This document shows positions 1,425 through 31,175 of a DNA stretch of 31,175 nt, in pieces (within the stretch, counting starts at the first letter, position 1; the number at the start of each line of letters is the position of its first letter). The notes beneath the pieces are model-generated. The model worked only from the letters and a program-made list of their open reading frames with translations, was not told where the DNA came from and made no database searches. The position numbers and the translations under genes were made by a program. Origin of the DNA: a virus. Where the stretch lies: positions 1-31,175 of IMG/VR virus record IMGVR_UViG_3300036760_001535; one strand, 5' to 3'.

Positions 1425-4400
1425 TCAAAGCGTGGCAGTCGCCGGCCAACCGCGGCCCACGGTGGCGGAGAGCTGGTAGACCTTCACAAGCACGGAAGAC
1501 TGCGGCGCGCCGAAATCGGTCGTCTGCTGCGCAGCGGTGTATGTTGCGGACGGCGTTGTCGAGGACAGTGTGCGAGCGACCGTCGAGCCGTTCACGACGT
1601 CGATCTCGTAGCGCTCACTCTCTTCGTTGAGCGGGACGTCGACGCCATCGGCCCAGCCACCACCGAGGCGGGTGCGCCGTACCCAGGTGACCGAAAGATC
1701 ACCCGAGCCGTTGCGTGTACCCCTGACCTGAACCGGGGACCACGGCATCAAGCCGACCGCCCGGGTCGTAAACGTCGTCTGCTGCCATGCCGGATCGCTC
1801 GCATCGAGGCCGGGCGGACCCCAGCGGTAGAAGCGGGCAATGCCGCGCTCGGCGAGGGCCGTCTGCAGTTGCGCGATAGCCCCGTCGATCAGAACGACGG
1901 GGGCAGCTGCCGCGAGCGGCGAACGCATGCCGTGTTCGGTCCCCATCCGGCCACGCAGGAGCTTGGTCAGGTCATAGGTACTCGGCGCGACCAGGTTCGC
2001 GTTGCAGAATTGCACGATCTCCCAATCGCCGTCCGGCGTGCCGATCGCGAGCGCGTTCGCGCCCCCCGCAAGGATTTCGGCTTCGGTGCGGCTCGTCAGC
2101 TCGCCGGCATAGAGTTTGATCGAGAGGACATTGACGTCGTCCCAGTACGCCGTCGGCCCGGCCGGGAAGGAACCCAGCGTCTCGCCCATGATGGCGCGGA
2201 TCGGCAGCGTGGTGTCGACCGCGAAGCTCGATCCGGTCGCGCTGTCGAGCACCAGGATGCCGGCGAACGGCGAGGCGCAAGCGCCGGCATAGGGCGACCA
2301 AGGAACGTCGGTGTCGATCAGGATCGGCAGGTCCATGATCCGCAGGACGGCGGCGCCGAGGACCGGCGGCACCGTCACCGCGGGCGGCGCAATGCCCGGA
2401 AGCAGCGGAGCGTAGACCGCGGCCTCGGCCCGCTGCGCTTCCATGTTGCGCTGTCCGCCGTCGTTGATGCGCGTCAGGCGGAACGAGCGCGAGCGACCGC
2501 CAATCACCAGATCGATCACGTCGCCCGGGTCGAGTGCAACGAGCGCAGGCGGAAGCGCGAGTTTTGCGGTTTCGCGGGCGATCCAGGCTTCGGCGAGTGC
2601 TCGATCGGCGATCCCCTGCGCCTGCACGTCATCCATGACCAGTGCGAAGCTTGCGTCGCGCTTGCGGTCCGACCACCCCGCAAGCCGGCTCGCGGCGATC
2701 GACCCCGACTGATAGTCGTTGTTGCCGTCGATGAAGGTGACCGAGACCACGTCCGGCAGATCGGTCTCCTGCGCGCGCGTCAGCGTAACGGCATCTCCCT
2801 GATCCGGCGCGACGCAGTCCTCGGGTTCGACGGTGGCGACCGAAGGGCGGCCACGCGCCACGAAGCGGATCACGCCTTCGCTTTCGGTGGCGTCGAAGGC
2901 GAACGCCTGCATCAGCATTTCGATTTCGGCGCGGGGGCTCATCGGCCGGTCGCGCACGTAGCCGACGACGATACCGAACAGGCCGGTGACATCGACTTCC
3001 GTAAACCCGACCCTTGCGCAGCGCTCAGCTACGAGCGCGCCGAGGTCGGCTAAGCCCACCTTGCCGTTGAGCCAATGGCCAAGGGGCCAGAGGTCGCCGT
3101 CGCTCCAGATGTCGGTGCGGGCGGGCCAGGCGGGATACGGGCGGGCATCCCAGGTCCACGCCGCGATCGTCGCGACCATCGGACCGCCGTAAACCGACGA
3201 GATCAGATTGTTGCCCGCCCAATAGGTCAGCATCGCCTCGATGCCGCGCCGCTGGATCAGGTCGTCCCGCGTGCCCCGCGAATAGTAGGGGAGCGCGCTT
3301 TCCGACGACTTCGGATCGTAGAAGACGTTCGGCTGGTTGGTCCCGCGGTCGACCGAGGGAATGCCGAACTCGGTGAACCAAATCGGTTTCGACTGCGGCG
3401 CCCACGCGGTGTGCGACCCGCTCTCGGTCCCGCCGGGACGGTCGTAGTGGTCATTGAGCCACCAGTTGCGGAAGTCCTTTGCGCGCCAGACCCAAGGCTT
3501 GCCGTAGGCGCCGTCGGTGATCGACGTGCGGGTCTGGGCATCGCGGTCGGCCTGCGACGCATAGAACCAGTCAAAATCTTCGCCGCCCTCGATGTTCGAT
3601 TGCAGATAGGCGTGGTCGTAGATCGAGGGAGCGCCTGCGAGCGCGTCGAGATGCGCGGTGCCGTCACGCCAATCGGAGAGCGGTACGTAGACGTCGACCC
3701 CGACGAAATCGATGTTGGCGTCGGCCCAGAGCGGATCGAGATGGAAAAACAGATCGCCCGAACCGTCGCCAGGCTGATAGCGGCCGTAGTCGGACCAGTC
3801 CGCCGCATAGCCGACCTTCACGCCGGAGCCGAGGATCGCCTTGGCGTCGGCTGCGAGTATCTTGAGATGATCCGCTGCCGGAAAATGCGTGGCGCTGTCG
3901 CGCACGGCGCAAAGACCGCGCAGCTCCGAGCCGATGAGAAACCCGTCGACAGCCCCGGATTCGACCGCATTGATGGCGGCGCAGAGTCGCGCGCAATGCA
4001 GGATGAATCGCCGGAAGCTCCACTCGTTTGGTCCCGAATAGACCGTGGTGACCGCGTTCGACGATCCGTTGACTGAGACGCCGATCTGATCGCGCGTGAC
4101 TGTCCCGAAGAACGACGCGATCTGACTCGAAGCCGCCGCCGTCTTGTCCACCGTACCGGGCCGCCCGGGCGCCGGGTCGCAGGTGATGCGACCGCGCCAC
4201 GGATAGGCAGGCTGTCCGGTATTGCTGGTCCACGGATCGGGCAGCGTGTTTCCGCTCGCAATGTCCATGAACAGGAACGGATAGAAGATGATCGAAAGAC
4301 CGCGTGCCTTGAGGTCGCGGATCGCGCGCACGAGAGAGTCGTCGGATGGCGTGCCGCCGTAGGCGGGCCGGCCCTGGACGGTGCTGACGACCGCCGCGAC

Positions 4401-21731: not shown

Positions 21732-21954
21732 GCCGTTCTCGCCGCATGCGCCAATTCTCGAAGGCGCGTCGCATCAGATAGGATCGCAGAAGCGACACGC
21801 CCGTGAAGACGGCGCCCAGCAGCAGGTTCTCCCCGAGGCTCGGCCGCAGTCCGAACAGTGGAAACACGGCCATCTGTGTCGCGACGGCGACCCCGTATCC
21901 GATCATGACGTTCGCAACCGCCTCCACCAGGGACGTGAGGCGGCTTTGCATCAT
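21712..21954 (-). CDS. Small membrane protein (DUF7220-like)
   Basis: An 80-residue protein with two predicted membrane helices (residues ~10-32 and ~42-62): VEAVANVMIGYGVAVATQMA, and LGENLLLGAVFTGVSLLRSY. It ends in a basic tail (MRRAFENWRMRRERQ). It matches the DUF7220 type as I recall it, found repeatedly next to phage ParB/methyltransferase genes. The ATG overlaps the methyltransferase stop (ATGA), so the two are coupled. Function is unknown. Confidence 0.75.
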   Translation of the reverse strand: MMQSRLTSLVEAVANVMIGYGVAVATQMAVFPLFGLRPSLGENLLLGAVFTGVSLLRSYLMRRAFENWRMRRERQSAAGP

Positions 21955-23201
21955 GCGGCCATTCGCTCGGTCCTGAGCTCATCGAAGCTGCGGCCACTGC
22001 CGGCGAGCGTCGCTGCAATTCTCGTATGTCGCTGCCACCGCTCAATAACAACATCGCAATAGCGTGGATCTATTTCCATCGCGAGGCAGACGCGACCGAC
22101 GGTTTCGGCCGCGATCACGGTCGATCCGGAACCGGCAAAAGGCTCATAGACGGAATCGCCTCTCGCGCTGTTATTCACGATCGGCCGGCGCATGCACTCG
22201 ACCGGCTTCTGAGTGCCGTGCACGGTCGCCTCGTCCTCTTCAACGGCGGCTCCGATCGCCCAGAGCGTGGTCTGATCACGCGCACCCTGCCAGTTTCCGT
22301 TTGCGCCCTTGCGGACCGCGTAGAAGCAGGGTTCGTGCCGCCAGTGATAATCACCCCGACCGAGCACGAGGCGCGGTTTGGCCCAGACGATCTGCGCGCG
22401 AATGTTGAAACCGCATGCCTCCAGGCTCTCGGCGACGGTGCGGCTGCGGACGCCCGAGTGCCAGACGTAGGCGACGTCCCCCGGAAAAAGCGCCCACGCT
22501 TCGCGCCAGTCAGCACGATCATCGTTGCGGACTTTGCCGGTGCGCGCCGTCACCGACACGCCGGCTTCATTACGCCAATTGGGGTCATACTCGACCCCAT
22601 AGGGTGGATCGGTGACCATAAGGTGCATGTGGACACCATCGAGAAGGCGCTCGACGTCGGTCGGCGCGGTCGCGTCCCCGCACAGCAATCGATGCGGCCC
22701 GATGAGCCACAGGTCGCCCGGCCGCGTCACTGCCCGGGCTGGCGTCTCCGGAACTTCATCTTCACCCTCGGAGGTTCCATCTCCATCGAGGCCGTCGAGC
22801 AGACGGTCGAGTTCGTCGTCCCCGAAGCCCAGGAGTTCAAGGTCGACGCCGTCTTCCTTCAATCGCGCCAACTCGGCGGCAAGGAGCGCTTCGTCCCAGC
22901 CGGCATTGAGCGCGATCTTGTTGTCGGCGAGCCGAAAGGCGCGCGCCTGCGCGTCGGTCAGGTGACCGAGACGGATGACGGGCACTTCCGAGAGCCCGAG
23001 ACGCTTCGCAGCGATGAGGCGCCCGTGACCCGCGATCAATACGCCGCGTTCGTCCACCAAGCACGGCACGTTGAAGCCGAATTCCGCGATCGATCCTGCA
23101 ATCTGTGCAAGCTGTTCGTCGGGGTGGGTCCGCGCATTGGCTGCATAGGGCAGAAGCCGTTCGATCGGCCAGTGCTCGACCTGAAGCGCTTCAGGCAGCA
23201 T
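21951..23201 (-). CDS. ParB-domain / DNA methyltransferase fusion (first copy, DPPY type)
   Basis: A 416-residue fusion. Residues ~8-100 are a ParB/Srx-like nuclease fold with the AGHGR motif and a following LADNKIALNAGWDE. The rest is a beta-type DNA methyltransferase with catalytic TDPPYGVEYD (DPPY at ~198-201), and the SAM-binding YEPFAGSGSTVIAAE near the C-terminus. DPPY suggests an N6-adenine enzyme. The start at 23201 (MLPEALQVEHW) overlaps the preceding copy by 11 bases; a longer in-frame start at 23309 would overlap far more and adds an atypical N-terminus. No restriction enzyme is adjacent, so it is probably an orphan methylase protecting phage DNA or regulating gene expression. Confidence 0.92.
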   Translation of the reverse strand: MLPEALQVEHWPIERLLPYAANARTHPDEQLAQIAGSIAEFGFNVPCLVDERGVLIAGHGRLIAAKRLGLSEVPVIRLGHLTDAQARAFRLADNKIALNAGWDEALLAAELARLKEDGVDLELLGFGDDELDRLLDGLDGDGTSEGEDEVPETPARAVTRPGDLWLIGPHRLLCGDATAPTDVERLLDGVHMHLMVTDPPYGVEYDPNWRNEAGVSVTARTGKVRNDDRADWREAWALFPGDVAYVWHSGVRSRTVAESLEACGFNIRAQIVWAKPRLVLGRGDYHWRHEPCFYAVRKGANGNWQGARDQTTLWAIGAAVEEDEATVHGTQKPVECMRRPIVNNSARGDSVYEPFAGSGSTVIAAETVGRVCLAMEIDPRYCDVVIERWQRHTRIAATLAGSGRSFDELRTERMAA

Positions 23202-24579
23202 CCGCGATCTCCACGCCGCGTTCAGCGGCGATCTCTTCGAATGTTCGACCGGTACCATCGAGCGTGACGGGTTGATCCGGAAAGAGCTTTCGCCAACGCA
23301 AGACGGCAACGTCGATGTATTCCGGGGCGAGCTCGATCGCTCTCACGCTCCGGCCGGTGCGCTCGCCTGCAATCAGGCTCGTGCCGGAGCCGGCGAAGGG
23401 CTCATAGGCAACATCGCCCTCGTCGCTGTAGGCACGCATCACGAACTCGGGCAGCGCGACCGGGAAGACCGCCGGATGTTCGGTCTCGATGCCGCGCGCC
23501 TTGTGTCGGGTGATACGGATGACGCTGTCCGGAATGCGGGTCTCCTGCACGCCCTGGCCCGCATGGCTCCATTCCCCGACGTGACCATCGCGGCTGCGCA
23601 TGCCGCCGTGCGTATCGTTGATGTGCCCCGCCCACTTGCAAGGCACGATCTTGTTGGGCTTCCGCGCCGTCCGATTGAAGTGGAATACCAGCTCGAAGGC
23701 AGGCGCCAAGCGGCCGTTCCAGTCGCCCGGCAATCCGGGTCCCTGGTCCCAGGAGTAGAGCGCGAAGCGGCGCCAGCCTTGCTCCCGCATCCAGTCGAGC
23801 CAGCTCTGCCAATAGGGCTGCCACTCGTTGTCGCGATGGATCAGGCCGAGGTTGACGAGAAGCTGCGCCTCGTTAGTAACCGGAAGGCCGGCGAACACGC
23901 CCTGCATCAGCGCGTCCCAATCGCCGACGCCGCCGGTCGTGTAGTCGCGTTGGTTTCCGTAGGGCGGCGAGGTGAAAACGAGCGATGCGCGCTCCCCCTC
24001 CATGACGCGCGAGACCACCGCCGCATCGGCACTGCTGCCGCAGAGGAGGCGGTGGCGACCGATCAGCCAAAGATCGCCAGTCCGCGTGACTGGTTCGCGT
24101 AGCGGAGCGGGCGCTTCGTCGGCAGCATCTTCGCCGCCGTCACCGGCTTCCGCCTCACCGCCGAGCGGCGCCATGAGCGCATCAAGCTCGGCATCGGAGA
24201 ACCCCGTCAGGGCAAGATCGAAGCCCTCGCCATTGAGCGCATGCAGCTCGGCCGCGAGCAGTTCGTCGTTCCAGCCCGCGTTGAGCGCCAGCTTGTTGTC
24301 GGCAATGACGTAGGCGCGACGCTGCCCTGGGGTCAGGTGTCCGAGGACCACCACCGGCACGGCGTCGAGACCAAGCTTCCGGGCCGCCAGCAGTCGGCCG
24401 TGACCGGCGACCACCACGCCCTCGGCGTCGACTAGGATCGGGTTGGTCCAGCCGAACTCGACGATCGAGGCGGCGATCTGCGCGATCTGGTCGTCTTCGT
24501 GCGTGCGTGCATTGCGCGCATAGGGAATCAGCCGGTCGAGCGGCCAATGCTCGACCGTATCGGGCAGTCGTGGCGTCAT
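23191..24579 (-). CDS. ParB-domain / DNA methyltransferase fusion (second copy, SPPY type)
   Basis: Paralogue of the following gene, 462 residues from the chosen ATG (MTPRLPDTVEHW). It shows the same ParB-like N-terminal part (VVAGHGRLLAARKLG, ADNKLALNAGWNDE). The methyltransferase core has VFTSPPYGNQRDY (SPPY at ~204-207) and ends in YEPFAGSGTSLIAGERTGRS. SPPY is more typical of N4-cytosine enzymes, whereas the neighbouring copy has DPPY, so the two may modify different bases. A GTG start at 24651 would add residues encoded by the upstream repeat cluster and is less likely. No good ribosome site was seen before the chosen ATG. Confidence 0.92.
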   Translation of the reverse strand: MTPRLPDTVEHWPLDRLIPYARNARTHEDDQIAQIAASIVEFGWTNPILVDAEGVVVAGHGRLLAARKLGLDAVPVVVLGHLTPGQRRAYVIADNKLALNAGWNDELLAAELHALNGEGFDLALTGFSDAELDALMAPLGGEAEAGDGGEDAADEAPAPLREPVTRTGDLWLIGRHRLLCGSSADAAVVSRVMEGERASLVFTSPPYGNQRDYTTGGVGDWDALMQGVFAGLPVTNEAQLLVNLGLIHRDNEWQPYWQSWLDWMREQGWRRFALYSWDQGPGLPGDWNGRLAPAFELVFHFNRTARKPNKIVPCKWAGHINDTHGGMRSRDGHVGEWSHAGQGVQETRIPDSVIRITRHKARGIETEHPAVFPVALPEFVMRAYSDEGDVAYEPFAGSGTSLIAGERTGRSVRAIELAPEYIDVAVLRWRKLFPDQPVTLDGTGRTFEEIAAERGVEIADAA

Positions 24580-24907
24580 GTGGTTTGTGTTCGCGCAGTA
24601 CCGCGACGCGGTGGTAACTTGTTTCGGGGTTACCACGCGTGGGGTTACCACCCGCGGCGAGCGGAAAACTCGCGCCGTTGCGCGCCTTTAGGGCACACAG
24701 GGGCCAACGTTGCGTGGTAACTGGTAACTCAGATTTTGCCGCTGACGGTGGCGAAGTTTCGGGCCATTGCCCCCCGCATAGGATCTCCGCCAGGAAGGAC
24801 CCGCGATTGCCTCGACGCGCGCACGTCTCGCGAGCCTGCCAACGAAACTAGCCAATTCGGTGCGTTCTGTCTGAGCGAAAAGTGTCTGGCAGACATCTTT
24901 CGCTCCA
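24580..24907 (-). promoter_or_regulatory. Intergenic control region with clustered GTGGTAAC / GTTACCAC repeats
   Basis: This 328-base gap between the methyltransferase operon and the DUF6362 gene contains no convincing gene. It holds five copies of one short motif: GTGGTAAC at 24611-24618 and 24714-24721, its reverse complement GTTACCAC at 24629-24636 and 24644-24651, and a partial TGGTAAC at 24722-24728. The two middle copies extend to an 11-base direct repeat GGGGTTACCAC spaced by 15 bases. Position just upstream of the operon suggests operator sites for a repressor or for the methyltransferases themselves. No confident -35/-10 pair was assigned. Confidence 0.6.
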
Positions 24908-25713: not shown

Positions 25714-28023
25714 TTAAAGCTCCATCTCGGTGGTGCCTGCGCTGCCCTCGCGTAACCGCAGCCCTCGAAAGCCTCGTGCTCGATGATCCCGGCGCTTCTC
25801 GAAGCCCCGGCTCACGAGGTTCTCGGAGAGCCATTTGACCGAGGCGATGAACTCTCCGTTGGCTTCCGCCCACACCTTCCAGGCGGCAAAGAGGGCTGCG
25901 CTGGTCTCGGTCAGGTTGGGCCCGCGTTCGCACTTTTCGTCGAGCCACCGGCCGAGCGAGTCCTCGGCCTCGAAGTATTCCTCGGTCGCCGCTGCGACGG
26001 CGGCAGGAGGCTTGAGGCCGATGCGCTGCCACTCGCGGCATCCATCGACCGCCCAGGCCAGGATGCCGTCACGCTCGGCCAGCAGCTTTTCCGGCAGCTT
26101 CTGGTCCCGCTGACTCGGCGGAATAGTCACGGTGAAGGGGATCAGGTGGAGCCGGCGCCGCATCGCCTCGTCGACGTTGCGAATGGCCGGCTTGTGGTTG
26201 CCCGCGATGATGAGCTTGAACTGCGGGATGAACTCAAAGAAGTCCTGCCGCATGAACCGGGCGGTGATCTTGTCGCCGCCAGTCAGCGTCTTGAGCTTGC
26301 TCTCCGCCCAGCGCCGCCCCTGCTCGGTTTCGGTGGCCGTGACGAGGCGCGCGCCACGCAATCCCGCCATGTCGGTCGGGTGCCGTTCGCCCATTGTCGC
26401 CATGAACATGTCCATGGGGGCGACGGTCGCGAAGTCGCCCAAGATCGCGGCGACCGTGGTGACGAAGACCGATTTCCCGTTTGCGCCCGTGCCATACAGA
26501 AAGAACAGCGCGTGCTCGCTGGTGACGCCGGTGAGGCAGTAGCCCACGACGCGTTGAAGGTAGGCTTCCAGCTCGGCGTCGCCGCGTGTGACGGTGCCCA
26601 GGAAATCCTGCCAGGCCGGACATTCGCCGCGTGGCGTGGCGGTGGCGATCTTCGTGTTGGCGTCTGTCCGCCTGTGCGGAACAAGTATCCCCGTCCTGAG
26701 ATCGACCACTCCGCCGAGCGTGTTGAGCGACCACAAATCGGCGTCCCAGATATCGGTCGATGCGGCATGACTTCGGTCCGCGCGCGTGAGCCGCTCGACT
26801 GCCGCCACCGTGCCGGCGGACGCAAGCTTGGCGCGCAGCTTGACATTGGTGCAGGCGGCCGCCGCTTCTCGGCACACGATCCGTGCGAGGTCGTAGACCT
26901 TCAGCGTGTTTTCGCGTTGCCAGTGCGTGCCGGTCCAGACGAGCCATTGGCCCCAGGCGGCCACATAGCGCCAATCCTCGCCATGGCGCTGCGTGAACTG
27001 GAGCGCCAGCGCATCCTCGGTAAATTCCGATGCGCCAAGGCCCGCCTTGTCTTTGCGCTCGCTGTCCCGCTGCCCAAGCCGCTTCGTCTCATGCCGAAGA
27101 CGGTCCATGGGCCAAGGCGGAATGATGCAGGCTTCGTTGTAGGAGACGATCTCCCCCCATGCCTGCTCGCGCGAGATGTGCCCCTCCGCGCAACGCCGAA
27201 TCCAATATCCGATGATGCGGCTCAGTGCGTCGAAGCGCGTGATGCCGTCAACGCCCCCTTCGTGGACGCGCTTTGCGAGGAGTTTAGCCGCGGGTTCCTT
27301 AGCCGCGCGGGTGGCATCCGGTGTTGTCACCGTGCCGTCGGCAAGGACGGGCAACGCTTCAACCTTCTCGGCAAGTTCGCTGAGGTCGTATTCCAACGAT
27401 CGTTGGGCGCGAATTGCGACCAGGCGCTCGACGCCACCCTTGCGATAGATCGACCCCGCAACACGGATCGGCTGGTGCGCCGATCCAAACGAGGGATCGC
27501 CTCCGACCCTGTCGGCGATCACCGACCGAAGCTTGCACACCGCCGCAACGTCGGTACCTACGGCAGGCTCGGTCAGATTCCAGTAGAGGTGAAGTTTTTC
27601 CTGGCCCTGCTCCGTAATGCCGCCCGAGACGACCTCGAGGGATGGCGGCCCGAGATGCTCGGCAAGGTGATCGCGTTTCGATCGCACGTCGCCGTGGTCG
27701 AGATCGACCAGCACGGTCTGCATTGCGACGACGTCGTCCGCCTTGGCCTTGCCTTGCCCCGACACGGTGCCGGGGATGACGTAGAGAGCTAGACCTGCCT
27801 TGGCTGCTTCTGTCGCCTCCGCCACAAGCTTGATGCCGAGATCCGAGTCGGCGCGGAGAAACGGCAATCTCGGCGGCCGATTTGCTGTACCCTTTTCGGA
27901 GAACTCCCGTACCGCTACCCACCCGTCGCAGTAGCTGAACAAGACCTTCGAAAAGGTCTCGATCAGCGCGGGGTCGGGGGCAATCGGATTGCCGGCGTCA
28001 TCTCCCTCGGTCATCGCCATCAT
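25714..28023 (-). CDS. P4-type phage DNA primase/helicase
   Basis: Replication initiation protein, 769 residues from the preferred ATG; numbering below is from the longer frame that begins at 28137. The N-terminal half is archaeo-eukaryotic primase/RepB-like: VLVDLDHGDVRSKRD (DLD at ~145-147), KLHLYWNLTE and PIRVAGSIYRKGG. The C-terminal half is a superfamily 3 helicase: Walker A LYGTGANGKSVFVT (~549-556), the acidic TATETEQGRRW, FKLIIAGNHKP, and EAMRRRLHLIPF with its arginine finger. The start at 28023 follows the HTH gene by 13 bases; the 28137 frame would overlap that gene by about 100 bases. It should open and prime phage DNA, plausibly at the nearby repeat element. Confidence 0.95.
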   Translation of the reverse strand: MMAMTEGDDAGNPIAPDPALIETFSKVLFSYCDGWVAVREFSEKGTANRPPRLPFLRADSDLGIKLVAEATEAAKAGLALYVIPGTVSGQGKAKADDVVAMQTVLVDLDHGDVRSKRDHLAEHLGPPSLEVVSGGITEQGQEKLHLYWNLTEPAVGTDVAAVCKLRSVIADRVGGDPSFGSAHQPIRVAGSIYRKGGVERLVAIRAQRSLEYDLSELAEKVEALPVLADGTVTTPDATRAAKEPAAKLLAKRVHEGGVDGITRFDALSRIIGYWIRRCAEGHISREQAWGEIVSYNEACIIPPWPMDRLRHETKRLGQRDSERKDKAGLGASEFTEDALALQFTQRHGEDWRYVAAWGQWLVWTGTHWQRENTLKVYDLARIVCREAAAACTNVKLRAKLASAGTVAAVERLTRADRSHAASTDIWDADLWSLNTLGGVVDLRTGILVPHRRTDANTKIATATPRGECPAWQDFLGTVTRGDAELEAYLQRVVGYCLTGVTSEHALFFLYGTGANGKSVFVTTVAAILGDFATVAPMDMFMATMGERHPTDMAGLRGARLVTATETEQGRRWAESKLKTLTGGDKITARFMRQDFFEFIPQFKLIIAGNHKPAIRNVDEAMRRRLHLIPFTVTIPPSQRDQKLPEKLLAERDGILAWAVDGCREWQRIGLKPPAAVAAATEEYFEAEDSLGRWLDEKCERGPNLTETSAALFAAWKVWAEANGEFIASVKWLSENLVSRGFEKRRDHRARGFRGLRLREGSAGTTEMEL

Positions 28024-28036
28024 GGAGGCCGTAAAT

Positions 28037-28294
28037 TCAGGCACGGCCGGTGGCGGCAGAGACCTCGACGGCGTTCGCCGTGCTCGTGCGCACCTGTTGG
28101 GCTTCGTATGCCTCGACGTCGTCGAGGCGATAGACAACGCGACCGCCGATCTTGAGGTACCGCGGGCCCTGCCCTAACCAGCGCCAGCGCTCCAACGTGC
28201 GCGGGCTGATGCTCCAACGACGGGATAGGTCAACCTGATTGAGATGGCGGATCGGCTTGACCTGGTGGGCATCGGCTTGGATATTCTCGGGCAT
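28037..28294 (-). CDS. AlpA/excisionase-like helix-turn-helix protein
   Basis: An 85-residue DNA-binding protein of the MerR-like HTH_17/AlpA type: IRHLNQVDLSRRWSISPRTL followed by ERWRWLGQGPRYLKIGGRV and VYRLDDVEAYE. These proteins act as excisionases or regulators of early genes in prophages and P4-like elements. An AGGAGA ribosome site lies eight bases or so before the ATG. It heads the leftward replication operon. Confidence 0.9.
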   Translation of the reverse strand: MPENIQADAHQVKPIRHLNQVDLSRRWSISPRTLERWRWLGQGPRYLKIGGRVVYRLDDVEAYEAQQVRTSTANAVEVSAATGRA

Positions 28295-28444: not shown

Positions 28445-30400
28445 TCAACGTCGCTCAGGTGGACTTGTGACAGGCTGTGCCGGGCTGTGTGACGTCACCG
28501 TGCTTTCGATCTCTCCGATCGCAACGAATCGTATGTACGGATTCAGCCGGTAGCCCTGACGCGCCTTGTTCTTAATGAGCAGGTGTTTCGGCGGATCCTG
28601 GCCGAATTTCCGCTTGTAGGCATCGCGCACAGCGGTACGGCAACGAGTCACCCGCTGGCGAACTGTCGGCTCATCGATTTGAAGGCCTTCCGCGAGCTTG
28701 TGGGACGTCACGTACTGATAATTCTCGGGGCTACGGCCATCGGACAGGTCTTGCTGAAAGGCGCCGTGAAGCTCATGAACCAGCTTGCTGTCGGCATCCC
28801 CGAGCTGAAGCAAGTCCCGGACAACGATCTGTTTTGTCTTTGCGTCAACTGCCAACTGCAGACCATCGCCATCTGCTTGTTTTGTCGCGGCACTTGCCCG
28901 CTCCGCCTCCGCGTCGTCGACCCATGTCTGCAATGAATCAACACGCTTGCCCATGATTGCGATGGCTGGCGCTCCGCCTGTCGATACGGTCATCACCAGC
29001 AGAGATGACGGCGGCAGCGTTTTGCTGACAAGTTCCGCGCTATGCGTTTCGACCGCGGCCTTGAGCACGCCAGCAATCCCTTGAGCATGTCGTTGGTGAA
29101 GGTCGAGAACTCGGCGCCCGACCTCGTCTGCGCTCTGCGACGGAAAACACTTGAGGACGCGCGCAGTTTCACCACCGAACCGGCCGAAGAATGCCAGGTC
29201 GCTTGATTCAAGGAGCTCCAGTGCCGTTCTTACGTAGGACTCGGCCATCGTTTGGTCGTCCGCCTCATCGCGTAGGCCGGCGAGGAGCTCTACCTTGTAC
29301 ATCTCGACGGGATCATGTTCGGCAGCATTAGCCGCAAGAACCGCGAAGCGGCGATCGATGCACTGCGAACAGCAACCGCAGTGAGTGTGTAGCTTGGTGA
29401 TGTTGTAGACCCGCGTACAGCTGACAGTGTGCCGGATCAGCTCTCCACAACCGCGATCCACGATTGACCGAACGACATCTCCTTTGGTCTTCCAGATGAA
29501 AGGATTGTCGACGTCAACCGCCTTGCCCACAGCCGCACTGAAAAACTGCCGAAAGTGGTCCAAGACCAAAGGATGCGTGGTGCGCGTTGCACGGGCACCA
29601 ACGACCTGCTCGGAGATTGGCAAATTGATGCTGACGACACCGTTCTCGAAGAATCGAATCCGGCTGTTCCCGAGCAAACGGGCAACAACGCAAGCGAGTG
29701 CCGCGTAAAGAAAGGACCGAGATCGCTGCGTAAATTCTTGAACCCGGAGCGTTTGTTGGGTCGTCGCAAGAACTGGTACGTGCATGACCTTCTGCGGAAA
29801 TCGCGTGACGAGTTCCGTGACGAGATGCTTTTGATGGTCGTACATTTTTGGTGACGAGCGATGGCTCACGAGCGCGACGCGTTTACCATTTGCCGACAGT
29901 TCCTCGATGGCCCCGCTGAGGGAGTCTAGCCCGCCAGAAAATAGAACGACTTCGTCCGCCTTAAATGTCGCGCCACCGTCGGCATCGCTAAACTCCAGAT
30001 AGTCCTGAATTGGAACCGGATTGGTCACCTTTTCAAACTCGAACTCGTAATCATCTTCCGACAGAAACGAGAGCATCGAGCAGAGCGCTTCCAAGACGTT
30101 ACGACGGTTCCAATGATCCGGATTTCTCACTGGAATGACGAATCGAAAGCTGCGGCGCCAGTCCGCGCCCATCCCAACCTGCGCTGGACCACCTCGACTT
30201 ATCGCTTGGTCAGCGCAGTAGACGTATGTGGCAATTTCGATAAGGTCGACGAGCAGGCCGGGAACGTTCCTGACCATTTTCTTGCTGATGTCTTCCAGCT
30301 TGAGTGTGATGTTCTGTGCTCGACCGCTCAAGGCAAGCCTCAGCGTCGGAGTTCCACCGGACCGCCTTGCTCCGCCACAGAGGACGAGACGCTCAGCCAT
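28445..30400 (-). CDS. QueC-like PP-loop enzyme with C-terminal winged-helix domain
   Basis: A 651-residue protein with three parts. Residues ~1-145 are an extra N-terminal domain. Residues ~148-365 are a QueC-like (7-cyano-7-deazaguanine synthase type) PP-loop enzyme: VVLFSGGLDSLSGA (PP-loop SGGLDS at 155-160) and a zinc-site pattern with Cys at ~328 and CGCCSQCIDRR at 341-351. Residues ~560-625 resemble an OmpR-type winged helix (VTSHKLAEGL, EPTVRQRVTRCRTAVRDAYK, then GYRLNP). It is far longer than housekeeping QueC (about 230 residues). QueC-like enzymes of this kind are known from the Qat and type IV CBASS anti-phage systems, where they are thought to act on partner proteins rather than in queuosine synthesis. 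It overlaps the upstream gene by eight bases with a GGAGAG ribosome site. Confidence 0.88.
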   Translation of the reverse strand: MAERLVLCGGARRSGGTPTLRLALSGRAQNITLKLEDISKKMVRNVPGLLVDLIEIATYVYCADQAISRGGPAQVGMGADWRRSFRFVIPVRNPDHWNRRNVLEALCSMLSFLSEDDYEFEFEKVTNPVPIQDYLEFSDADGGATFKADEVVLFSGGLDSLSGAIEELSANGKRVALVSHRSSPKMYDHQKHLVTELVTRFPQKVMHVPVLATTQQTLRVQEFTQRSRSFLYAALACVVARLLGNSRIRFFENGVVSINLPISEQVVGARATRTTHPLVLDHFRQFFSAAVGKAVDVDNPFIWKTKGDVVRSIVDRGCGELIRHTVSCTRVYNITKLHTHCGCCSQCIDRRFAVLAANAAEHDPVEMYKVELLAGLRDEADDQTMAESYVRTALELLESSDLAFFGRFGGETARVLKCFPSQSADEVGRRVLDLHQRHAQGIAGVLKAAVETHSAELVSKTLPPSSLLVMTVSTGGAPAIAIMGKRVDSLQTWVDDAEAERASAATKQADGDGLQLAVDAKTKQIVVRDLLQLGDADSKLVHELHGAFQQDLSDGRSPENYQYVTSHKLAEGLQIDEPTVRQRVTRCRTAVRDAYKRKFGQDPPKHLLIKNKARQGYRLNPYIRFVAIGEIESTVTSHSPAQPVTSPPERR

Positions 30401-31175
30401 TGGCGTCTCTCCGCTTGCGCAATTCCGCGCGGAGCTTCTTGAACGCTACATGCGCAAACTGGCTGGCCTTGTCCGGGCTAATATCTCCTTCTTGGAAGAG
30501 CGTCTTGCCGTACCATCCGCCTGAGAATTCCTTGATGATCCGCGATGCTTCACGGCAGTGCAGGTCCAACGCGGCGTTGAAATCGCTGTGCTCACTGACA
30601 GCGGCAAACCGTTTGTTTGGACCGACATGTTTCGACAGCTCTCTGCTCAGGAAATAGCCGAGCGAGCGGCTGGTAAGCCGAGAAAAGAAATCGCGTGCGA
30701 GGACGCTGAACCGATCCGATGTGCCGAGCTTGGCGAAGGCCTGCTGGACGTCACCTGCGGTGGGGCCAAAGAGACTCGGTAGCTCGCGGCCGACCAATGA
30801 GGAAAGGGTCTCGGCAGCAGCATGCTGCGCCATTTCGCCGAGATCGCTTCGCTTGCCGCTGTCGCGAACATGCCGGTCAACCGCAGTGGTGAACGCCCCG
30901 ACGATTTCCAGGAGAGTGGGCTTGCTCGAAACCTCCAGCCCCAGCCGCTTCAACTGGTCGGCGAAGTTGACCTGCCTCGCCGCCTGCGGGAGCTGGGTCA
31001 GCAGCCAAAATGCGTGGGCAAGCCCTTGGTCCGCAGACGCTCGTTCGAGTCCGTGTTCAGCGGCATCGGCGCTTGCAGCGGCGATCCGCCCCACATCGGC
31101 TCCCGCCGCGATGAGGCCGACGACCTGCTCCCACTTGTGCGTTTTCGGAAGCGCACCGAGGCGAACGTGACCCAT
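30393..31175 (-). CDS. QueC-associated helical partner protein, reaching the window edge
   Basis: A 260-residue, mostly helical protein of unknown function directly upstream of and overlapping the QueC-like gene. The first in-window ATG is the last codon of the window and gives the N-terminus MGHVRLGALPKTHKWEQVV; because nothing upstream is visible, the true start could be further out. The protein lacks a signal peptide, membrane segment or known catalytic motif. Visible segments include ADQGLAHAFWLLTQLPQAAR and LGYFLSRELSKHVG, and a conserved-looking C-terminus with EFSGGWYGKTLFQEGDISPD before a basic tail. Coupling to the QueC-like gene suggests it is the enzyme's substrate or partner. If the visible start is right, Met removal would expose an N-terminal glycine. 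Confidence 0.75.
   Translation of the reverse strand: MGHVRLGALPKTHKWEQVVGLIAAGADVGRIAAASADAAEHGLERASADQGLAHAFWLLTQLPQAARQVNFADQLKRLGLEVSSKPTLLEIVGAFTTAVDRHVRDSGKRSDLGEMAQHAAAETLSSLVGRELPSLFGPTAGDVQQAFAKLGTSDRFSVLARDFFSRLTSRSLGYFLSRELSKHVGPNKRFAAVSEHSDFNAALDLHCREASRIIKEFSGGWYGKTLFQEGDISPDKASQFAHVAFKKLRAELRKRRDANG

What the first reader, a model, noticed from the sequence alone, without database searches (positions are those of the whole stretch)
28445..31175. Two-gene QueC-like module beside the prophage: candidate undescribed anti-phage system
The sequence shows an overlapping pair: an enlarged QueC-like PP-loop enzyme (SGGLDS, Cys4 zinc pattern) and a helical partner. QueC family members act in queuosine/7-deazaguanine synthesis, and divergent ones act in defence (QatC of Qat; Cap9 of type IV CBASS). 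I see no QatA ATPase, TatD nuclease or CD-NTase in the window, and no queuosine genes, so this does not match a known layout as far as visible. Position next to a phage early operon and lower GC than the phage genes fit defence cargo. It could equally be a known system whose other genes lie past 31175.
Basis: partly seen in the sequence, partly recalled or inferred. Interest (0 to 1): 0.85.

Follow-up and report, generated by a model that had tools for sequence, protein, structure and literature searches.

The report
Prophage QatB–QatC-like pair with DNA-binding tail
At one end of a prophage sit two overlapping genes that look like the core of the known Qat anti-phage system, but without its other two genes and with a DNA-binding domain fused to the enzyme; over a hundred viral contigs carry the same partner family, and wherever the next gene is covered it is almost always the same fused enzyme, so this appears to be a widespread, undescribed minimal variant.

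Summary
In detail: a 651-aa QueC-family protein (28445-30400, -) overlaps a 260-aa helical protein (30393-31175, -) by 8 bp at the edge of a siphovirus prophage. The enzyme is QatC-like: PADLOC QatC E=2.9e-60, QatC crystal structures as best PDB hits, all QatC signature residues kept. The partner matches no Pfam, NCBIfam, PADLOC or PHROG family. [quoted passage not shown] A partner search found 112 viral contigs; 51 nonredundant complete pairs were built. QatA and QatD are absent from all loci tested. The enzyme's extra C-terminus is a winged-helix DNA-binding domain here, and a DpnII-like nuclease in a Leptospira plasmid relative. Pairs usually lie beside a large serine integrase and before an AlpA-like gene; a related phage has another cassette in that slot. 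Best reading: a natural two-gene 'QatBC' superinfection defence in which QatC modifies the partner's N-terminal glycine and a fused DNA-directed domain delivers the response. Layout and conservation are shown; activity and chemistry are inferred.

The parts
28445..30400 (-). QatC-like QueC-family protein, 651 aa, with a C-terminal extension beyond the ~465-aa QatC
   Evidence: PADLOC QatC 2.9e-60; NCBIfam QatC 218.8 bits, below its cut-off of 280; PDB QatC 9vlk 5e-35; signature invariant in 50 relatives
29921..29938 (-). SGGLDS PP-loop (residues 155-160), ATP/pyrophosphate site
   Evidence: S155 G156 G157 D159 S160 invariant
29570..29629 (-). Loop NLPxxxQVVGARATRTTHP (about residues 258-277), aligned with the QatC loop that packs on QatB and carries the two substrate-site threonines
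   Evidence: role from PMC13279940
29360..29419 (-). Zinc site C328, C341, C344, C347 followed by R350 R351 (QatC pattern C...CGxCxxCxxRR)
   Evidence: pattern from PMC13329287
28523..28858 (-). C-terminal winged helix-turn-helix (about residues 515-626), after a low-confidence linker (about 474-511)
   Evidence: AF2 pLDDT >90 over most of it; Foldseek: AdeR DNA-binding domain, probability 1.00, TM 0.68 by target; two relatives hit Pfam Trans_reg_C, best 1e-9
30393..31175 (-). Partner protein, 260 aa, all-helical, proposed QatB equivalent
   Evidence: no real family match; 60-sequence alignment; AF2 pLDDT 89.6; weak profile similarity to QatB, above all shuffles
31131..31175 (-). N-terminal tail MGHVRLGALPKTHKW of the partner; Gly2 is the proposed acceptor site
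   Evidence: Gly2 in 89/90, His3 89/90, Leu6 89/90, Gly7 88/90 distinct partners
28037..28294 (-). AlpA-like excisionase/regulator, downstream of the pair and co-directional
   Evidence: phrog_66, 8.7e-7; AlpA-like motif 190-410 bp downstream in 21 of 52 loci with enough sequence
25714..28137 (-). Phage primase/helicase, context
   Evidence: phrog_6088, 7.1e-152

Best explanation
The two genes form a natural two-gene QatBC-type superinfection-defence module carried by a prophage. The partner plays the role of QatB. After removal of Met1, its flexible N-terminal tail (Gly2-His-x-Arg-Leu-Gly...Pro...Trp) is threaded into the QatC-like active site, and the enzyme uses ATP to modify the alpha-amino group of Gly2, as Cap9 does to its CD-NTase and as proposed for QatC-QatB. 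Infection-triggered formation or use of the modified complex is then coupled to DNA through a domain fused to QatC: a winged helix in the window and most relatives, or a DpnII-like nuclease in Leptospira. In the four-gene Qat system, DNA binding (QatA) and the predicted nuclease (QatD) are separate proteins; here a DNA-directed function is fused in cis. Shown here: gene pairing, QatC signature, glycine tail, absence of QatA/D, nature of the window's C-terminal domain, position beside the integrase. Inferred: defence, N-terminal modification, DNA as the target or signal.
For: QatC-like by profile in 50/50 members, with D52, D64, R69, W81, R226, R228, E252, G254, H276, P277, T305, C328, C341, C344, C347, R350 and R351 invariant and K306 nearly so, which is the QatC signature and not the canonical QueC one (PMC13329287). 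P. aeruginosa QatBC alone gives full defence against lambda-vir, and a QatB G2D change or loss of the conserved tail segment abolishes it (PMC13279940). Partner Gly2 in 89/90 distinct proteins; the one exception (L045, Asp2) has no QatC-like gene detectable in its 17.6-kb locus. Pairing and overlap in all 51 nonredundant loci. QatA/QatD absent in 65 loci, with 9/10 and 10/10 recovered in canonical controls, and in 48 virus records. Winged helix; DpnII-MboI domain, E=1.2e-9. Partner-QatB profile score 34.7 against a shuffle maximum of 22.9, and 33.0 against 24.6. Exchangeable slot: L148 has the pair, L150 (primase 69% identical to the window's) has a different cassette at the same place. Purifying selection on core and wHTH.
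Against: No activity data. Partner-QatB homology is weak (hhalign 28-35% probability), and Foldseek found no PDB match for the partner, though QatB may not be in that library (released up to 8 April 2026). The tail is shorter (about 15 residues) than QatB's 30-90 and reads MGH, not MGTS. The QatC reaction has never been reconstituted, even for canonical QatC. The slot beside the integrase is also where phages keep lysogeny regulators, and a winged helix suits regulation. The 17 long-type C-termini are unassigned by Pfam, so a DNA-directed domain is not shown for every member.
Confidence: 0.68

Rival explanations
1. The pair is a lysogeny or immunity regulator of the prophage: the QatC-wHTH protein acts as a modification-controlled repressor or antirepressor of the early operon (AlpA, primase) and the partner tunes it.
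For: It lies between the integrase and the early genes and is transcribed towards AlpA, with the AlpA-like motif 190-410 bp downstream in 21/52 loci. The C-terminus is an OmpR-type winged helix. In relatives without the pair the slot holds XRE-ImmA-like regulators plus another cassette. No CI-like repressor was noticed in the window, though none was searched for exhaustively.
Against: The pair also occurs beside a tyrosine recombinase and a RloC-like ATPase (L025) and on a Leptospira plasmid (L022), where the C-terminus is a nuclease domain. Its closest characterised relatives are defence proteins. At least one related phage lacks it (L150). C-terminal types differ between phages using the same slot.
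Confidence: 0.17
2. Part of a complete qatABCD operon whose qatA and qatD lie beyond 31175.
For: The window ends at the partner's start codon, so the upstream side is not seen directly.
Against: qatD normally follows qatC, but here AlpA and phage primase follow. 0/65 related loci carry QatA or QatD; 0/48 virus records carry KAP or TatD families. Close relative L148 has serine integrase and DUF2924-like genes upstream.
Confidence: 0.03
3. A 7-deazaguanine (preQ0) biosynthesis or DNA-modification gene pair of the phage.
For: The QueC family; phages do carry QueC homologues (PHROG 1550, E=5e-13).
Against: The QatC signature replaces the canonical QueC motifs (PMC13329287). The best matches are QatC, and QueC profiles match only weakly. 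No queuosine-pathway gene was recognised in the window. Published QatC does not complement a queC deletion.
Confidence: 0.03
4. A toxin-antitoxin or abortive-infection pair in which the partner is toxic and the enzyme controls it, with defence as a by-product.
For: Overlapping two-gene layout with a small first gene.
Against: An orphan partner without the enzyme exists (L045), which is hard to square with a toxic partner unless its Asp2 change inactivates it; no toxin fold is seen. The large catalytic second gene is unlike classical antitoxins. This overlaps with the best explanation if defence is abortive.
Confidence: 0.09

Closest known systems
qatABCD (Qat) anti-phage system
   Same: QatC core, signature residues, N- and C-terminal extensions; preceding helical partner with an N-terminal Met-Gly tail; QatBC alone suffices for lambda defence (PMC13279940)
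   Different: No QatA or QatD; partner not recognisable as QatB by sequence search; MGHxRLG tail in place of MGTS; enzyme 596-708 aa with a fused wHTH or nuclease domain; mostly in prophages beside a serine integrase
Type IV CBASS Cap9-CD-NTase (deazaguanylation)
   Same: QueC-family enzyme paired with a protein whose N-terminal Gly2 is essential; presumed N-terminal modification
   Different: No CD-NTase or Cap10 seen; the QueC-motif tyrosine and aspartate are replaced by QatC-type residues; partner fold unrelated to CD-NTase
Canonical QueC (preQ0 synthase)
   Same: PP-loop ATPase fold, zinc cysteines
   Different: QatC-type motifs, about three times longer, no pathway genes
Winged-helix-fused restriction enzymes and DpnII/MboI-type nucleases
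   Same: DNA-directed domain fused to a defence enzyme
   Different: Fused here to QatC, a combination not found in the papers searched

Membership tests
QatC protein family | Profile match over the QatC core | tested here: met
   PADLOC QatC 2.9e-60 over residues 34-376; all 50 relatives match. NCBIfam equivalog QatC 218.8 bits, below its cut-off of 280
QatC protein family | SGGxDS, D63, D(x)4R, WxR, RxRxxxF/Y, ExG, HP, P(x)4TK, C...CGxCxxCxxRR | tested here: met
   Invariant or nearly invariant in A4, against the published signature. The D(x)4R to WxR spacing is 11, not 7
QatC protein family | About 400-465 aa without an extra C-terminal domain | tested here: not met
   651 aa with a C-terminal wHTH
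QatB | N-terminal Met-Gly tail with conserved Pro and Trp | tested here: met
   Gly2 89/90, Pro at 9-12 in 86/90, Trp at 13-19 in 78/90; but MGH, not MGTS
QatB | Sequence or profile homology to QatB | tested here: inconclusive
   No PADLOC or NCBIfam QatB hit; hhalign E about 5e-4, probability 28-35%, above all shuffles
QatB | QatB fold and 1:1 complex with QatC | tested here: inconclusive
   All-helical AF2 model; no Foldseek PDB match, but the library may lack 9zee/9vll; complex not modelled
qatABCD system | qatA (KAP ATPase) in the operon | tested here: not met
   0/65 loci, 0/48 virus records; control 9/10 canonical loci
qatABCD system | qatD (TatD nuclease) in the operon | tested here: not met
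   0/65 loci, 0/48 virus records; control 10/10
Type IV CBASS | CD-NTase partner modified by Cap9 | tested here: not met
   Partner matches no CD-NTase family; all-helical model; QatC motifs, not Cap9 motifs
Canonical QueC | YxQxHxxE, VPxRN and YPDC motifs and C(x)8CxxCxxC | tested here: not met
   QatC-type motifs instead; equivalog score 22.3 against a cut-off of 150.3
Anti-phage defence | Reduces plaque formation | not testable with these tools
   Needs a plaque assay

The most novel reading that the evidence does not exclude
A distinct, prophage-borne family of minimal QatBC systems in which N-terminal modification of a new substrate protein by QatC directly switches a cis-fused, exchangeable DNA-directed domain (winged helix or restriction-type nuclease), so that sensing, modification and DNA attack or silencing lie in two genes.
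Probability: 0.4. Interest if true: 0.82.

Novelty: new variant of a known kind. Interest (0 to 1): 0.62.

Why it matters
What QatC does to QatB, and how that stops a phage, is stated as open in the 2026 structural paper. This family offers natural two-gene versions in which the part downstream of QatC is fused to it, so the suspected target (DNA) can be tested by swapping or deleting one domain. It also suggests a sizeable class that system definitions requiring QatA and QatD would miss: 112 viral contigs matched the partner search, while in the plasmid collection only one record carried the partner. It defines a cargo slot beside large serine integrases where other uncharacterised cassettes sit.

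Tried and rejected
Pfam, NCBIfam, PADLOC and PHROG scans of the partner gave nothing usable (the one NCBIfam line, E=0.09, is noise). phmmer and profile searches of the PDB with the partner gave only noise. Foldseek of the partner gave no fold match. A profile search of viral contigs with QatB failed for lack of conserved stretches. Tyrosine integrase (PF00589) was expected beside the pair but found in only 6 of 48 virus records; serine recombinases were the right answer. A PDB profile search with the C-terminal domain gave only weak hits, so the wHTH call rests on the fold and on Pfam hits in two relatives. A dN/dS value for QatC against L002 (0.61) is discarded because those sequences were compared without alignment across an indel. 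Queuosine synthesis and a cut-off qatABCD operon were considered and rejected.

Full report
Observation. The window is an IMG/VR virus record of exactly 31175 bases holding a siphovirus prophage: terminase subunits, portal, head protease/capsid, tape measure, tail protein, primase, AlpA-like excisionase and two ParB-methyltransferase genes. At one end, on the minus strand, lie a 260-aa gene (30393-31175) and a 651-aa gene (28445-30400) that overlap by 8 bp. GC is 62% and 57%, against 65% for the phage part.

The enzyme. Its best matches are QatC: PADLOC 2.9e-60, NCBIfam QatC 218.8 bits (below the cut-off of 280), PDB QatC 5e-35 and 6.5e-30; QueC itself matches only weakly. Across 50 relatives the residues that define QatC in the published signature (PMC13329287) are invariant or nearly so: D52, D64, R69, W81, R83, R226, R228, E252, G254, H276, P277, T305, K306, C328, C341, C344, C347, R350, R351 and the SGGxDS loop. 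Every relative matches PADLOC QatC. dN/dS against L004 is 0.07, and 0.09 for the C-terminal domain alone.

The partner. No library names it. A profile from six partners found 112 relatives in viral contigs, of which 80 were kept, and more in bacterial genomes: 4 of 369 in one class sample and 11 of 299 in one order sample, each counting the genome the sample was centred on. Almost every relative for which the downstream gene could be read has the QatC-like gene overlapping it; 51 nonredundant full pairs were built. Some other loci are truncated by the contig end or broken. The partner starts MGHxRLGxLPxTxxW; Gly2 is present in 89 of 90 distinct proteins, and the single exception, Asp2 in L045, has no QatC-like gene detectable in its 17.6-kb locus. 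The QatBC paper shows that QatB's N-terminal glycine and tail are essential, that G2D abolishes defence, and that QatBC without QatA and QatD protects against lambda-vir (PMC13279940). The AF2 model of the partner is confident and all-helical. Profile comparison with QatB is weak (probability 28-35%) but its score exceeds all 60 shuffles of each QatB alignment. I therefore treat the partner as a QatB equivalent and as a probable, unproven, distant homologue.

No QatA, no QatD. KAP ATPase and TatD families are absent from 48 whole virus records, and QatA/QatD queries find nothing in 65 pair loci while recovering 9/10 and 10/10 canonical operons. By its definition this is not qatABCD.

The fused domain. 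Beyond the QatC core, the window protein has a helical extension, a disordered linker and a winged helix: AF2, Foldseek to the AdeR DNA-binding domain with probability 1.00. Two relatives match Pfam Trans_reg_C, best 1e-9. In the Leptospira noguchii plasmid relative the same place holds a DpnII-MboI nuclease domain, E=1.2e-9. By end-motif, 28 of 51 are of the window's type and 17 of a longer, unassigned type that looks winged-helix-like to me but was not tested. Since QatA binds DNA (PMC13279940) and QatD is a predicted nuclease, fusion of DNA-directed domains to QatC suggests that the module acts on or through DNA. That is inference.

Genome position. In 32 of 52 loci with at least 3 kb upstream, a large serine recombinase ends 0.6-2.2 kb before the partner, divergent in 24; an AlpA-like motif follows 190-410 bp downstream in at least 21 of 52. 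Among relatives of the window's primase, L148 (80% identical) has serine integrase, pair, AlpA and primase in order, whereas L150 (69% identical) has, between the same integrase and AlpA, an XRE-ImmA regulator and an unrelated two-gene cassette. That cassette's first gene occurs in 12 of 80 primase loci and in none of 65 pair loci. So the pair is exchangeable cargo in a fixed slot. Exceptions outside this setting are L025 (tyrosine recombinase, RloC-like ATPase) and the Leptospira plasmid.

Mechanism and rivals. Best: the N-terminal glycine of the partner is modified by the QatC-like enzyme, and the complex drives a DNA-directed response that limits superinfection (0.68 for the QatBC-type defence reading; the DNA step is less certain). 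Main rival: a lysogeny regulator, favoured by position and winged helix, disfavoured by the nuclease variant and by occurrences outside the slot (0.17). Queuosine synthesis and a truncated qatABCD are unlikely (0.03 each).

Novelty. In the papers I could search and the text of the two QatC papers, I found no description of QatBC-only operons, of QatC fused to a winged helix or nuclease, or of this partner family; preprints and subscription papers were mostly not searchable. One paper reports QatA next to only about a third of QatC-cluster members, so QatC outside qatABCD is implied but not explained. Rated a new variant of a known kind.

Noticed in passing
L131 (NZ_CP017148.1), L132 (NZ_CP045347.1), L018, L019: Another QatC context in rhizobial, Bosea and Labrenzia replicons: a ~188-aa partner starting MSDGPHRSLPMxxxW and a QatC-like protein with altered PP-loop (SEGMDS/SDGMDS); in L131 and L132 an XRE-family regulator and a ~205-aa protein follow. 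Not qatABCD.
   Followed up: partly
L129 (NZ_CP084474.1, Natrinema plasmid), 1879-4212: Archaeal operon with a partner starting MGSASASSS, a small acidic protein and a QatC-like protein with SDGLDS: possibly an archaeal glycine-tail substrate pair.
   Followed up: no
L150:5604-7714, L162:712-2806, L153:673-2782: Uncharacterised two-gene cassette (phrog_37634 plus a ~320-aa protein with no family match) upstream of AlpA in pair-less relatives, beside XRE-ImmA-like regulators. Candidate immunity or defence cassette.
   Followed up: partly
L045:10001-10762: Partner with Asp2 in place of the otherwise invariant Gly2, and no QatC-like gene detectable in the locus.
   Followed up: yes
L025:3141-10863: Pair convergent with a tyrosine recombinase and next to a RloC-like AAA ATPase: looks like a small defence island outside the serine-integrase slot.
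   Followed up: no
L026:53-1466: Pair near a serine recombinase whose QatC-like gene breaks off after about 186 residues: a decayed copy.
   Followed up: partly
window 21951-24651: Two tandem ParB-domain DNA methyltransferase genes (phrog_498) in the same prophage; whether they relate to DNA recognition by the pair is unknown.
   Followed up: no
OR848142.1 and OR846725.1 (Listeria phage records): The only QatC-like matches among 50,697 phage records, 26% identity.
   Followed up: no
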